The notes beneath the pieces were generated by a model that did no database searches, had not been told where the DNA came from, and saw nothing but the letters and a program-made list of their open reading frames with translations. The translations under genes were made by a program, and so were the position numbers. Shown here piece after piece: positions 22,940-37,238 of a DNA stretch of 37,334 nt (position 1 is its first letter; each line of letters opens with the position of its first letter). Source of the DNA: Neisseriaceae bacterium (GTDB lineage: Bacteria > Pseudomonadota > Gammaproteobacteria > Burkholderiales > UBA11063); contig RXKI01000080.1 of assembly GCA_003962895.1 (NCBI GenBank), forward strand, positions 1 through 37,334. Reading direction: 5' to 3'.

Positions 22940-23860
22940 ATGTTGAAAATAAGCACTTTCGATTCTGTCAAGCATCTAATCAAAACAAGACCTGGAATAA
23001 TTGTAACAAACGTTTGTAATTTGTCTTGTGGAGGATGTTATGCTCAATGTGGAAAATTTGAAAAAGACAAAAATTGGTTTATATCTCTAGATCAATTCAA
23101 AGAAAATTTAGATTATATAATCTCTTACATGTATTCAGGTTCCACTACAATTTTAAATGGAGAAAAGGTAAGAATTAATCCCAATAATCATCCAATCGAT
23201 CTTATTGGAGGAGAACCAACAATACATCCAGAGTGGGGGAAAATATGGGAAACAATTACATTGAATTACAAATCAATTAATTTTTTGGTTTCAACAAATG
23301 GAAGAATGGAGCTTCCAAGCGTATCAAATGTAAAAACACATACAGATTACAAAACAAAAGAAAAGGCATCTAATTATTCTTTTGCTCCTACTTTAGTTGC
23401 TCCAATTGACATAATAGGAGATGAAAACAAAGGATTTTATTGGAAACAAGCACAAACAGATTGTGGGATATGGAAATCTTTAGGATGTGTTAATCCAATT
23501 TATAAAAACAAAATATCAATTTGCTCTGTTGCTTCTAGTTGGAATGATTTGCTTGGTTTAGATTTAGGATGGGAATTAACTAAAGGAGAAAATCCTTTTT
23601 CTAAATTAACAGATTTTGAAATTAGAAAAAAAGCAAATCAAGTTTGTTATCGTTGTGGCTGGGCATGCAAACTAAACTTACCTGAAGATCAAAAATCAAA
23701 TTCTTATGATTTAGTAAGTCCAACTAATTTAGAAGTTTTAACCAAAAATGATATAAAAAAACCATATAAAATAATTAAAAAAGAAAATAACAAATTTCAA
23801 ATAAGCGAATTAAAACAATCAAATGAAATTCAACTTGTTTCTCTTGACCTTAATTTTTAA
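22940..23860 (+). CDS. Radical SAM protein with a second Cys cluster
   Basis: 306 residues. C26-x3-C30-x2-C33 (CNLSCGGC) binds the [4Fe-4S] cluster that cleaves S-adenosylmethionine; GGEP at 90-93 is the SAM-binding motif. Further Cys at 175, 183, 195 and CYRCGWAC (236, 239, 243) suggest an auxiliary Fe-S site as in SPASM/twitch enzymes. Those often modify peptides or act as dehydrogenases or maturases. It is the only rightward gene inside the array. No Shine-Dalgarno is visible; TATATAAAAT abuts the ATG. It converges with the 23857 gene with overlapping stops. A role in modifying the Trp/Tyr-rich repeat proteins is possible but is inference. Confidence 0.88.
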   Translation: MLKISTFDSVKHLIKTRPGIIVTNVCNLSCGGCYAQCGKFEKDKNWFISLDQFKENLDYIISYMYSGSTTILNGEKVRINPNNHPIDLIGGEPTIHPEWGKIWETITLNYKSINFLVSTNGRMELPSVSNVKTHTDYKTKEKASNYSFAPTLVAPIDIIGDENKGFYWKQAQTDCGIWKSLGCVNPIYKNKISICSVASSWNDLLGLDLGWELTKGENPFSKLTDFEIRKKANQVCYRCGWACKLNLPEDQKSNSYDLVSPTNLEVLTKNDIKKPYKIIKKENNKFQISELKQSNEIQLVSLDLNF

Positions 23861-31151: not shown

Positions 31152-31238
31152 TTAATTCTCCTTGGAAGGACTATACTTTGTACAATCGCAAAAATAAAAT
31201 ACAAAAACACTAAATATATTAGAACACAGGAGAATGTG
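31152..31238. promoter_or_regulatory. Divergent promoter region
   Basis: Leftward: -10-like TATAGT (31175-31170 on the minus strand) with a weak -35, before AAGGAG and the 31151 start. Rightward: TATATT at 31215-31220 and AGGAG at 31228-31232, 6 nt before ATG 31239. Confidence 0.5.
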
Positions 31239-32219
31239 ATGAAGAAAAATTTATATGTATCATTTCTTTTATTGTTGGCTATTTTTTCTGTCTGGTCTTT
31301 TAAAAGACAAAAAGAAGAACAAAAAAACATACCAATAGAAAAAATAGAAATTAAAGAATCAGAAGTAGAAGAAGAAAAACCAGAAGAAATTAAAGAGGAA
31401 GAACCTCCAAAAGAAGAAGTCAAAGAAGAACCTGAATGGATTACATATCCTAAATTAAGAGAAGTAAACAACTTAGGAGTTGTTTTAAGTGACATAGAAT
31501 CTCACATGCCAGCAGGACATCATTTCGTCGACCCAGATAAAGTCACATGGGCACACGAGACTACTCATGGAATAAATAACGATATAAGAAACTCAAAAGG
31601 AAGAGGCATCAATGCATTTTATGTACTAAATGATAAAGCAGCAGTGATCGCAGAACCTAGAACAACCATAAGAAGAGTCGCTTCTACAATTCCACCAGTT
31701 TTAAGAGGATTCTCATACCAGCTTTACCTAGTTCAACAAGCAGGAGACTGGAACAATGAACCTCTTTATCTTATGGATGAATGGACAGCTTACGCAAACG
31801 GGGCAGAATGTGCAATAGAGATAGATAAAGATAGAGTAGCATCAGACCTTATAAGCAGCCATAATTTTAATGTATATTGTCTCTATTTGGCAAAATGCAT
31901 TAAAGAAGATTGCCCAGATTATGATGATAAACAATTTAAAGCATATTTAAAATGGGGGATTGAAAGAGTTTTTGATTTATCTAAAAATTCAGGATTTTTA
32001 ACATCTTATAGAATAGAAAAACAAAAAGTTGTTATCATACACATTCATAAAAAAATTAAAAACAAAGAAACAAAAGATCATTTCTTCTTGACAGAAGCAG
32101 ATTTGAACGTAGAAAGTTATTTAAATAAAGTTAGACAAGCAAGAGAAGCAGAGTTATTAAGAACTTTCATGAAAGAATACTTTGGCGAAGAATGGTGCAA
32201 AAAAACTTATGGGTTTTAA
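31239..32219 (+). CDS. Membrane-anchored HExxH zinc metallopeptidase-like protein
   Basis: 326 residues from ATG 31239; a GTG three bases earlier is too close to AGGAG. An N-terminal membrane segment or signal (YVSFLLLLAIFSVWSF) is followed by a Glu/Lys/Pro-rich linker (residues ~22-68). The catalytic-type motif is HETTH (106-110), with a probable third ligand in DEWTAY (E181), the gluzincin pattern. The likely role is a protease acting at the envelope or outside the cell; the substrate is unknown. Its TAA directly precedes the terminase-like ATG, so both are co-transcribed. Confidence 0.82.
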   Translation: MKKNLYVSFLLLLAIFSVWSFKRQKEEQKNIPIEKIEIKESEVEEEKPEEIKEEEPPKEEVKEEPEWITYPKLREVNNLGVVLSDIESHMPAGHHFVDPDKVTWAHETTHGINNDIRNSKGRGINAFYVLNDKAAVIAEPRTTIRRVASTIPPVLRGFSYQLYLVQQAGDWNNEPLYLMDEWTAYANGAECAIEIDKDRVASDLISSHNFNVYCLYLAKCIKEDCPDYDDKQFKAYLKWGIERVFDLSKNSGFLTSYRIEKQKVVIIHIHKKIKNKETKDHFFLTEADLNVESYLNKVRQAREAELLRTFMKEYFGEEWCKKTYGF

Positions 32220-33017
32220 ATGATAGATCATCAAAAAGAAATTATAAAATGTTCATCTGATTTTTTTTACTTTTGTGAAAATTATATCTTTATAAAGACA
32301 ATTAATTTTCCTGTTAAATTTAAATTATATGAATATCAAAAAAGATTATTTAATCATTGGGAAAAACACGATCATTCAATACAAAGTAAATTCAGACAAG
32401 GTGGATTCACAACACTGGTAACAATCTATGCTTTGTGGCTATGTCTGTTCAAAGAAAATCAAAAAGTAGTATTTTGCAGTAATTCAGACAGTATGTCACT
32501 AATAGTCGGAGAATCAATCTTAAAATTTGCAATAGCAACACTTCCAGATTGGCTCAAGGGAAACGTTTTGAAAATGACAAGTCAATATCAAAAGAAATTT
32601 GAAGATACAAATTCAACTTTTGTTTTAAAAAATCCAAAACATTTATCAACAATCGGCGAACCAATATCATTACTAATATTAGACGAAATTGACACTTGTT
32701 TCACAGAAAAGAACTGGTCTGCTGTTTACCCCTATATAAAAGGCAAGGTAATTGCACAGTCAACATTAAGTAACAACGACACATGGTTTTGGGGAAAATT
32801 AATCGATGCTAAAATCAAAATAAACTCATTTAATTCATTTGAATGTCATTATAAAGAACGTCCAGAATTTGACGAAAAATGGGAAATAGAAATGAAAAAA
32901 AATAGCATCTATTGGGAACAAGAATTTGAACAAAAAGCAATAGACACAGATGTTAAAGAAATAATTAAAGAAACAAAACAAAAAAAGAAAAGATATAGAG
33001 ATATTAATGAAGTTTAA
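32220..33017 (+). CDS. Terminase-like packaging ATPase, N-terminal domain only
   Basis: 265 residues. The order matches the ATPase half of phage large terminases: CSSDFFYFCENYI at the start, KLYEYQKRLF, a Walker-A-like FRQGGFTT (58-65), and Walker B LLILDE (151-156) followed by an STLSNND coupling motif. The lysine-poor Walker A (RQxGxT) occurs in this family. The nuclease domain (another ~200-250 residues) is missing; the protein ends in a basic KETKQKKKR tail. Either a split terminase with the nuclease elsewhere, or a relic or accessory ATPase. It converges with the 33014 gene with 4 nt of overlap. Confidence 0.78.
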   Translation: MIDHQKEIIKCSSDFFYFCENYIFIKTINFPVKFKLYEYQKRLFNHWEKHDHSIQSKFRQGGFTTLVTIYALWLCLFKENQKVVFCSNSDSMSLIVGESILKFAIATLPDWLKGNVLKMTSQYQKKFEDTNSTFVLKNPKHLSTIGEPISLLILDEIDTCFTEKNWSAVYPYIKGKVIAQSTLSNNDTWFWGKLIDAKIKINSFNSFECHYKERPEFDEKWEIEMKKNSIYWEQEFEQKAIDTDVKEIIKETKQKKKRYRDINEV

Positions 33018-36121: not shown

Positions 36122-36151
36122 GTTTTATCTCCAATACGAAAAGACATAGCT

Positions 36152-36180
36152 ATTATACTTCTTATTTTGGAATCGTAAAA
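36152..36180 (-). promoter_or_regulatory. Sigma70-type promoter of the accessory operon
   Basis: On the minus strand TTTTAC (36180-36175), 17-nt spacer, TATAAT (36157-36152), 31 nt before the ATG at 36121. Same architecture as the promoter at 22890-22918. Confidence 0.7.
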
Positions 36181-36236
36181 TCAGACCTTTTTAAAGTGAT
36201 TTGTCAAAAAAAAAGATAATTTTAATTAAAAATTCC

Positions 36237-36244
36237 TATAAATA
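36237..36244 (+). promoter_or_regulatory. TATAAATA box immediately before the 36249 gene
   Basis: Exact match to the T4-type late promoter -10 (TATAAATA), only 4 nt before the ATG, where no ribosome site is visible. If used, the transcript would start at or just inside the gene (leaderless). May be chance in AT-rich DNA. Confidence 0.35.
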
Positions 36245-36248
36245 AAAT

Positions 36249-37238
36249 ATGAATTTCAAAAATTGGCAAATACTCTCTGAATTAACACAAGTTGGATATC
36301 AAGAAGTCCAAAATAAAAAACTATTTGGTCCAGTTTATCACGGAACTACCGAAGAAAGCATGTCTAACATCATGACAGGTGGTTTTAAAGTCTTTTCTGG
36401 ACAAGCTCGTACTGGCGATGTCAGACACGGATATATACTTCAAGAATACGCCGATGGAAAACCTGCTCCAGTGCATCACCTTGGATATGGCATTTACTTT
36501 ACCCAAAGTAAATCTATTTTCAAACAATACCAAGGCAGCGGCAAAGGAATGAAGGAATTTTATCTTGATGTTCCAAGAATTGAAACCATTAACTTTGCTT
36601 CTCCAAATACCATGATGAAATGGTGGGTCAAAAATGGCTATGATATGCCAAAGTTAAAAGAATTATCTAATTATGCACCTTCTCAAGTAGAAGAAATTAG
36701 AATCAAAGCAACTCAAAACATGACAAACAAAATCAAACAAAATTATGATGCAATTTTGTTTAAAGGAAAAGGACTTTATAGCTTGTTAGATGGAAACCAG
36801 ATTTGCGTCTACGATCCATCAAGAATTTATTTGTTAAATCAAGAATTAAACGACGAAAATGAAATTTTTCCAGGTGACAAAGTTAAACTAAAAAATATTA
36901 AAGGTGCTGTAATCGTTCAAGATAAAAGACCTAAAAAATATAGATTTGATATAATGGACAAAATATTAAATCAAAATTCAAATTATATCTATACTGTGAA
37001 AATTGACTCCAAAACCCTTCAATTACTTAAAGATACATACCAAGAACAAGCTAGGTCTATTATAGAAAACGATCCTGAAGTAGCTGAGTTTTTAACTAAT
37101 AGAATGCAAAACTTAAACATGTCAAAAGAAGAAGCAATTCAATCTTATCTTGATTACTATTTTAGTAAATCAATTGCTCTAAACTTCCCCGAAAGATTAT
37201 TAGAGAAAAAAGTTAAAAAAGGAAGCAGAATTAGTTAA
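36249..37238 (+). CDS. ADP-ribosyltransferase-like protein
   Basis: 329 residues. GPVYHGTTEESMSNIMTGGF has the H-G motif (H31), HHLGYGIYFTQSKSIFKQY has the Y motif (Y83) plus the SKS..Y segment, and DGNQICVYDPSRIYLL is where the catalytic Glu of PARP-like H-Y-E enzymes is expected; here it is Gln (Q184). Phages use such enzymes to modify host proteins; with Gln the transfer activity may be altered, absent or rely on another residue. The C-terminal ~110 residues (helical, MSKEEAIQSYLDYYF) are unassigned. No ribosome site is evident. The 3' end overlaps the convergent gene by 8 nt. Confidence 0.78.
   Translation: MNFKNWQILSELTQVGYQEVQNKKLFGPVYHGTTEESMSNIMTGGFKVFSGQARTGDVRHGYILQEYADGKPAPVHHLGYGIYFTQSKSIFKQYQGSGKGMKEFYLDVPRIETINFASPNTMMKWWVKNGYDMPKLKELSNYAPSQVEEIRIKATQNMTNKIKQNYDAILFKGKGLYSLLDGNQICVYDPSRIYLLNQELNDENEIFPGDKVKLKNIKGAVIVQDKRPKKYRFDIMDKILNQNSNYIYTVKIDSKTLQLLKDTYQEQARSIIENDPEVAEFLTNRMQNLNMSKEEAIQSYLDYYFSKSIALNFPERLLEKKVKKGSRIS

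What the first reader, a model, noticed from the sequence alone, without database searches (positions are those of the whole stretch)
36249..37238. ADP-ribosyltransferase-like enzyme with Gln at the usual catalytic Glu
H31 and Y83 motifs are well kept, but NQICVYDPSRI has Gln where Glu is expected. This could be a pseudo-enzyme that binds NAD or competes with active ones, or a variant chemistry.
Basis: partly seen in the sequence, partly recalled or inferred. Interest (0 to 1): 0.5.

Follow-up and report, generated by a model that had tools for sequence, protein, structure and literature searches.

The report
Phage ADP-ribosyltransferase with fixed glutamine
This phage gene encodes an enzyme-like protein resembling human PARP, and the unusual glutamine in its active site is no accident: every relative found in other viral sequences carries it too, so the protein is probably a working one-unit ADP-ribose transferase rather than a decayed enzyme.

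Summary
ORF 36249-37238 (329 aa) has His31, Tyr83 and Gln184 (codon CAG, 36798-36800) where ADP-ribosyltransferases (ARTs) of the PARP type carry H-Y-E. It lies on a T4-like phage contig (terminase, prohead protease).

Single-sequence searches found nothing, but DNA-motif scans of viral contigs led to 26 distinct family members (20 clusters at 70% identity), from contigs of 4 to 543 kb (8 of 33 loci over 180 kb). His31, Tyr83, Asp181-Gly182 and Gln184 are identical in 26 of 26. A further scan allowing Gln or Glu gave 17 of 17 Gln. Two AlphaFold models match PARP1/PARP2 best, and residue counting puts the Gln on PARP1 Glu988.

So the Gln is a fixed family feature, not a lost Glu. PARP1 E988Q keeps mono-ADP-ribosylation in published work, and the H-Y-[EDQ] clade already allows Gln. 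The best reading is an active mono-ART, possibly packaged in the virion: head or tail genes lie near the ART in 11 of 20 neighbourhoods, and some members sit inside polyvalent proteins. Catalysis, target and packaging are inferred; a pseudo-enzyme is not excluded. New variant of a known kind; moderate interest.

The parts
36249..37238 (+). ART-like gene, 329 aa
   Evidence: ORF; family alignment; AlphaFold model
36273..36839 (+). ART catalytic domain, residues 9-197
   Evidence: model residues 9-197 align to PARP1 841-1001, Z 7.3, rmsd 4.0, 127 aligned
36339..36341 (+). His31 codon, motif I (YHGT, just after strand E26-30)
   Evidence: 26 of 26 His, codons CAT 14 / CAC 12; motif partly used for retrieval
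36495..36497 (+). Tyr83 codon, motif II (GYGIYFT, strand E82-85)
   Evidence: 26 of 26 Tyr, codons TAT 17 / TAC 9; motif partly used for retrieval
36789..36791 (+). Asp181 codon, the only invariant acidic residue of the core, three residues before Gln184
   Evidence: 26 of 26 Asp
36798..36800 (+). Gln184 codon (CAG) at the usual catalytic-Glu position, first residue of strand E184-187
   Evidence: 26 of 26 Gln, codons CAA 17 / CAG 9; 17 of 17 in the Gln-or-Glu scans
36861..37235 (+). C-terminal region (residues about 205-329), strands plus helices in the window model; a five-stranded set in the L072 model
   Evidence: secondary structure; L072 model residues 195-257 align to part of Sen1 (48 aligned, rmsd 1.3, Z 7.0)
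36122..36248 (+). divergent intergenic gap upstream; holds TATAAATA at 36237-36244, which is not enriched in the window and lies very near the start codon
32220..33017 (+). T4-like terminase large subunit (marks the contig as phage)
   Evidence: phrog_5989 E 1.2e-25; tblastn matches in 1776 phage records

Best explanation
The gene encodes a member of a tailed-phage ART family whose active site is H-Y-Q by design. His31 and Tyr83 hold NAD+ as in PARPs. Gln184 takes the place of the catalytic Glu and could still hydrogen-bond to the nicotinamide ribose but cannot act as a base. The protein would therefore transfer a single ADP-ribose to an acceptor that is a ready nucleophile (or brings its own base), and could not extend chains. 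It is probably carried in the virion and delivered with the DNA to modify a host macromolecule, as T4 Alt is. Shown: the ORF, the fixed Gln, the PARP-like predicted fold and register, and head/tail or polyvalent contexts of part of the relatives. Inferred: NAD+ binding, catalysis, mono-transfer, packaging and target.
For: Gln184 is the same in 26 of 26 distinct sequences, with both Gln codons used (CAA 17, CAG 9), in 20 clusters at 70% identity. Scans of viral contigs for the strand-5 motif with Gln or Glu allowed gave 17 of 17 Gln, all in this family. His31 26 of 26, Asp181-Gly182 26 of 26. Best solved-structure matches are PARP2 and PARP1 (best Foldseek E 6.2e-4 and 1.5e-4; best VIA Z 7.3 and 7.8). 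In both models the last aligned residue lies 13 after the Gln and matches PARP1 1001, 13 after Glu988. PARP1 E988Q is used as a mono-ADP-ribosyltransferase (PMC5552275 passages), though its elongation falls 2800-fold; [quoted passage not shown] Head or tail genes lie within 7 kb in 11 of 20 neighbourhoods. Members sit inside larger proteins, one with 2'-5' RNA ligase, KptA, NUDIX, GNAT and ART-PolyVal domains.
Against: No member found has a known activity. VIA-align Z is below 8, which the tool says may mean only a common arrangement; a profile search of PDB sequences with A2 found no ART. The register rests on range ends, not on a residue list; the same count on diphtheria toxin (188 against 163) misses its recalled Glu148 by two, so a small gap occurs in some pairs. 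Profile comparison with two Glu-bearing ARTs gave no reliable alignment. Inactive PARP-fold proteins exist (PARP9, PARP13; PMC6486540). Asp181 could be the real acidic partner. Packaging is inferred from neighbours only; 8 of the 11 supporting loci share a tail-tube homolog and largely one gene order and are probably one lineage, and the other nine neighbourhoods were mostly not annotated.
Confidence: 0.58

Rival explanations
1. Pseudo-enzyme: it binds NAD+ or ADP-ribosylated ligands through His31/Tyr83 but does not transfer ADP-ribose, and acts as a sensor, sponge or competitor of active ARTs.
For: The carboxylate that acts on the ribose is absent in 26 of 26 members. In the L064/L076 protein (one contig) another ART-type domain of the same chain reads SNVEYVVF, with Glu at what looks like the strand-5 place (motif reading), so an active/inactive pair in one protein is conceivable. 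Inactive PARPs are known (PMC6486540, PMC7955679, passages).
Against: A mere binder has no evident need for one residue fixed at strand 5 across 20 divergent clusters; the inactive PARPs named in the passages are altered at the His (PARP9, PARP13), which is kept here. PARP1 E988Q is still a mono-transferase (PMC5552275).
Confidence: 0.2
2. NAD+-consuming or NAD+-rerouting enzyme (NADase, or transfer to a small molecule or phosphate) rather than a macromolecule modifier.
For: One member is fused to NUDIX (L043, E 4.2e-11) and one large protein also has NUDIX, 2'-5' RNA ligase and KptA domains, an ADP-ribose and RNA-end processing set. PMC9503650 (section read) suggests NADase or phosphorylase activity for some phage ARTs, in a passage on the minority related to toxin systems.
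Against: NUDIX was seen in only two of the four ART-bearing large chains scanned; polyvalent proteins link unrelated activities (PMC5512222, passages), so fusion does not fix the reaction. Loss of the carboxylate would be expected to hurt hydrolysis as well (inference).
Confidence: 0.12
3. The catalytic acid has moved: Asp181 (invariant) reaches into the pocket and replaces the Glu, so the enzyme is canonical in chemistry though not in layout.
For: Asp181 is Asp in 26 of 26 and is the only invariant acidic residue of the core; it lies in the loop just before strand 5.
Against: It precedes the Glu place by three residues, and Gln184 would not need to be fixed if it were idle.
Confidence: 0.1

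Closest known systems
PARP1/PARP2 catalytic domain (Pfam PF00644; H-Y-E)
   Same: Best solved-structure matches of two models; same order of HGT, YFT and [EQ]xxV[FY] motifs; Q184 = Glu988 by residue count; 11 of 26 members touch PF00644 at E up to 0.1, best 4.5e-8.
   Different: Gln for Glu in 26 of 26; family-specific MMKWWxxNGY stretch and C-terminal region; the window protein itself has no PF00644 match at E up to 1.
ART-PolyVal (Pfam PF18760), ARTs of phage polyvalent proteins
   Same: Phage location, fusion in polyvalent proteins, profile matches in 21 of 26 members at E up to 0.1, best 5.4e-7.
   Different: The window protein is below the curated cut-off, as are the members of this family whose own domain was scored (the over-cut-off matches in the L071 and L076 chains are to other domains of those chains). 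The literature gives that clade an H-Y-D site (PMC5512222, passages); here D189 is D 19, N 4, E 3 and the fixed residue is Gln.
T4 Alt / ModA / ModB (R-S-E ARTs)
   Same: Phage ART; proposed virion delivery and host-macromolecule target; structural genes nearby in part of the relatives.
   Different: Strand-1 His and strand-2 Tyr in place of R and S; Gln in place of Glu.
PARP1 E988Q laboratory mutant
   Same: Same H-Y-Q triad; mono-ADP-ribosylation retained in published assays (PMC5552275, passages).
   Different: An engineered single mutant of a polymerase, not an evolved family.

Membership tests
ART superfamily, H-Y-[EDQ] clade | His in strand 1 (HG[ST] motif) | tested here: met
   H31 directly after strand E26-30, 26 of 26; partly by construction of the retrieval
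ART superfamily, H-Y-[EDQ] clade | Tyr in strand 2 (YF[AT] motif) | tested here: met
   Y83 in strand E82-85, 26 of 26; partly by construction of the retrieval
ART superfamily, H-Y-[EDQ] clade | Glu, Asp or Gln at strand 5 | tested here: met
   Q184 is the first residue of strand E184-187 and Gln in 26 of 26; clade definition from PMC7955679 passages
ART superfamily, H-Y-[EDQ] clade | ART fold | tested here: met
   Foldseek best hits PARP2/PARP1, E 6.2e-4 and 1.5e-4; predicted models only, VIA Z below 8
ART superfamily, H-Y-[EDQ] clade | NAD+-dependent transfer of ADP-ribose | not testable with these tools
   needs biochemistry
PARP (PF00644) | curated Pfam score reached by the window protein | tested here: not met
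   no PF00644 match at E up to 1. For other members the tally shows best E 4.5e-8 without a score; the one scored singly had 15.9 against 26.7 bits
PARP (PF00644) | catalytic Glu of the polymer-forming H-Y-E site | tested here: not met
   Gln in 26 of 26
ART-PolyVal (PF18760) | curated Pfam score of 31.2 bits reached by the window protein | tested here: not met
   18.2 bits; highest score shown for this domain in another member 25.5 bits; the best member (E 5.4e-7) has no score shown
ART-PolyVal (PF18760) | H-Y-D active site | tested here: inconclusive
   D189 is D 19, N 4, E 3 of 26; the passages read do not say which strand-5 position is meant (PMC5512222)
T4 Alt/VIP2 R-S-E clade | R-S-E triad | tested here: not met
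   H-Y-Q
virion-packaged ART (Alt-like delivery) | presence in the capsid | not testable with these tools
   neighbourhood evidence only: 11 of 20 loci with head or tail genes within 7 kb

The most novel reading that the evidence does not exclude
Tailed phages, some of them huge, have evolved a dedicated H-Y-Q ART family, a natural counterpart of the PARP1 E988Q mutant, in which loss of the carboxylate is the point: it locks the enzyme to single transfers onto an acceptor that supplies its own nucleophile or base (possibly a nucleic acid or RNA end, given the RNA-repair domains that accompany it in one large protein), with the invariant Asp181 and the WW-NGY stretch shaping acceptor choice, and it is injected with the phage DNA.
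Probability: 0.25. Interest if true: 0.65.

Novelty: new variant of a known kind. Interest (0 to 1): 0.42.

Why it matters
The role of the ART glutamate is usually argued from mutants. A family with Gln fixed through wide divergence is a natural experiment on whether that carboxylate is needed for mono-ADP-ribosylation, and a warning against calling ARTs without Glu dead. It also adds a family that the libraries searched here recognise poorly (window protein: no PHROG match at E up to 0.1 and no Pfam family over its cut-off) to the likely host-takeover set of large phages.

Tried and rejected
Direct searches with the window protein gave nothing: phages (first 201 residues), plasmids, viral contigs, genome contigs, relative genomes (1 of 100, the window's own), PDB sequences (two chance matches). 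The L065 homolog also had no match in phages or plasmids. NCBIfam gave one chance match.

Random degeneration or sequencing error as the cause of the Gln: rejected, because 25 other distinct members have it, with both codons.

Retrieval bias: the patterns (GYGIYFT; FGPV[YW]H) favour intact motifs I and II, so conservation of H31 and Y83 is partly by construction. Gln184 was in no retrieval pattern. The scans fixed its neighbours but left Gln/Glu open.

Duplicates: 43 ORFs matched the profile at domain E up to 1e-20; 17 with an identical or contained core were dropped before counting. Of the 26 kept, 20 neighbourhoods were laid out, and only selected neighbours were searched in PHROGs or Pfam.

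PHROGs: weak matches of some members to unnamed families (phrog_14664 in 11 of 26, best E 0.0028; phrog_19290 in 3, best E 2.8e-4); these families carry no function, so they were not used.

Profile comparison with two Glu-bearing ARTs (L076 second ART; L003) gave no reliable alignment (E 0.058 and 0.37). The single-protein Pfam scans did not settle the register either. In one search the stretches of L002 and L005 came out with internal stops (apparently the wrong strand); that output was not used.

A T4-like late promoter (TATAAATA, 36237-36244): 4 sites in the window against 3.6 expected, and very close to the ATG; rejected.

Sample of the host's phylum: the family profile matched 1 of 398 genomes, the window's own; PF00644 1 of 398, below its cut-off; PF18760 3 of 398. 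It is not a common gene there.

Literature: a search with 'H-Y-Q' among four terms listed 15 of 56 papers, none of the 15 with that term; requiring it gave 0 papers; 'H-Y-EDQ' gave 0; 'jumbo phage' with ART, PARP and glutamine gave 3 papers. Only open-licence PMC papers are covered. Aravind 2015 is not held and is cited through PMC7955679.

Diphtheria-toxin and exotoxin A-like chains stand beside PARP in the structure lists, tied within 1 Z; the register count was made on PARP. A cyanophage ejection-protein chain appears weakly (E 0.017, rmsd 13); not used.

Full report
Observation. The ORF at 36249-37238 (+) encodes 329 aa. It carries FGPVYHGT (H31), HHLGYGIYFT (Y83) and LLDGNQICVYDPSRI (Q184, CAG at 36798-36800).

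What the contig is. A T4-like terminase large subunit lies at 32220-33017 (phrog_5989, E 1.2e-25; tblastn matches in 1776 phage records, among the best a 595 kb uncultured phage at 32% identity). Beyond the window the same contig has a prohead protease (Peptidase_S77, 35.8 bits against a cut-off of 27, contig about 45370-45924) and a D12-class adenine methyltransferase. The contig is therefore phage DNA in a bacterial bin. That the phage is a very large one is inference.

Finding relatives. Searches with the protein itself failed. A degenerate DNA pattern for GYGIYFT in viral contigs (57 stretches) gave seven clear homologs among many chance matches (L035, L041, L043, L052, L056, L064, L065). 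Six of these and the window protein made alignment A1. A scan with A1 gave 33 viral loci and one genome contig titled as a Bacteroidota MAG (L100). The 33 source contigs run from 4 to 543 kb, 8 of them over 180 kb. A profile search over all fetched loci found 43 ORFs, of which 26 are distinct in the domain.

The glutamine is fixed. In the 26 distinct sequences Gln184 is Gln in 26, His31 His in 26, Tyr83 Tyr in 26, Asp181 and Gly182 the same in 26; Asp189 is D 19, N 4, E 3. Core identity between pairs runs from 40% to 95% (median 53%), in 20 clusters at 70% identity; the Gln codons are CAA 17 and CAG 9, so the constraint is on the amino acid. Only 26 of 189 core positions are invariant. Conservation of H31 and Y83 is partly by construction, because retrieval patterns hold those motifs; Gln184 was in none. 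As a separate test, two scans of viral contigs for the strand-5 motif with Gln or Glu allowed gave 12 and 5 stretches; all 17 read Gln and all lie in proteins of this family, three of them (L107, L108, L114) on contigs not seen before.

Fold and register. AlphaFold2 with the family alignment gave pLDDT 83.1, pTM 0.73 for the window protein and 88.4, 0.82 for L072. H31 follows strand E26-30, Y83 is in E82-85 and Q184 opens E184-187. Foldseek's best solved structures are PARP2 and PARP1 (best E 6.2e-4; 1.5e-4). VIA-align 2 pairs residues 9-197 with PARP1 841-1001 (Z 7.3, rmsd 4.0, 127 aligned), and 10-188 of L072 with the same range (Z 7.8, rmsd 3.9, 125 aligned). The last aligned residue is 13 after the Gln in both proteins (197-184; 188-175) and 13 after Glu988 in PARP1 (1001-988), so Gln falls on Glu988 if the last stretch has no gap. 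The PARP motif YxEY[VI][VI][FY] quoted in PMC7955679 (passages) gives the same register for [DN]Q[IV]xV[FY]. Against this: Z below 8 is not decisive by the tool's own note, only range ends are given, and for diphtheria toxin the same count misses the recalled Glu148 by two. In the library of viral predicted structures the hits include several annotated as PolyVal ADP-ribosyltransferase. No other Glu evidently fills the place: no Glu column is invariant in the core, and the only invariant acidic residue is D181.

What Gln would do. [quoted passage not shown] PMC5552275 (passages) states that E988Q alters PARP1 to mono-ADP-ribosylation and uses it to make mono-modified substrates. PMC7955679 (passages) gives the clade as H-Y-[EDQ]. 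An H-Y-Q ART is thus expected to be a mono-transferase, not necessarily dead.

Context of relatives. Of the 26 neighbourhoods 20 were laid out. Head or tail genes lie within 7 kb of the ART (midpoint to midpoint) in 11: a tail tube homolog in L043, L080, L081, L082, L083, L085, L087 and L090 (family named through the L043 member, phrog_4542, E 1.1e-22); a tail tube protein beside the L094 ART (phrog_13438); and the head maturation protease and major head protein in L069, with their homologs in L068. In L069 the portal gene lies directly upstream (Portal_T4, with an intein). The first eight largely share gene order and are probably one lineage. A baseplate hub protein is in the same run (phrog_150). 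The other nine neighbourhoods were mostly not annotated protein by protein. Several members are parts of larger proteins: L043 (779 aa, with NUDIX), L100 (1073 aa), L064/L076 (one contig), L095, L072/L074, and L071 (3327 aa, with 2'-5' RNA ligase, KptA, PARP-like, NUDIX, GNAT and ART-PolyVal matches). In L064/L076 another ART domain of the chain reads SNVEYVVF, with Glu at what looks like the strand-5 place, while L071 and L074 have Ser there (motif reading only). PMC5512222 (passages) treats T4 Alt as the model for ARTs in polyvalent proteins, and PMC9503650 (passages) says such proteins are likely injected with the genetic material.

Explanation. The best-supported account is an active mono-ADP-ribosyltransferase with a fixed H-Y-Q site, carried by tailed phages and probably delivered from the virion (0.58). 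Rivals: pseudo-enzyme (0.20), NAD+-consuming enzyme (0.12), relocated acid Asp181 (0.10). The sequence work cannot separate these; the bench tests listed can.

Known or new. By fold and motif it belongs to the H-Y-[EDQ] clade of ARTs, and Gln at the third place is allowed there. The window protein reaches neither the PARP nor the ART-PolyVal Pfam cut-off and matches no PHROG at E up to 0.1; some relatives come closer (best E 4.5e-8 for PARP, 5.4e-7 for ART-PolyVal, scores not shown). I therefore call it a new variant of a known kind. Searches for an H-Y-Q family in open papers found none; subscription papers were not covered.

Noticed in passing
window 6728-31151, - strand: At least 36 open frames (102-318 aa, stop to stop) carry a shared repeat of the type GPAVIYSNGDKEWWFNGKRHR; many match three further copies beyond the window (L007 10287-11577) by BLASTP. 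Pfam gave only weak, below-cut-off matches, or none, for the seven members scanned. A very long array of paralogs for a phage contig.
   Followed up: partly
L003:1495-2121 (another contig of the same genome bin): A 208-aa ART-like protein with Glu in its last motif (IEYIIFEP), ART-PolyVal 28.2 bits, just under the cut-off of 31.2.
   Followed up: partly
L069:2113-5976: T4-like portal gene of a 298 kb viral contig interrupted by an intein with an HNH-like domain.
   Followed up: no
window 32220-33017: The terminase ORF is only 265 aa (matching positions 110-281 of the 347-position phrog_5989), and the 327-aa ORF directly before it (31236-32219) matched no family. A split terminase is possible.
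   Followed up: no
window 22940-23860: Radical-SAM-like protein on the + strand inside the - strand repeat array (phrog_1802, E 8e-7; Pfam 25.1 bits, below the cut-off of 29.5).
   Followed up: no
L071:1-9981: 3327-aa frame with seven HGT ART-type motifs plus 2'-5' RNA ligase/Acb1-like, KptA, NUDIX and GNAT matches.
   Followed up: partly
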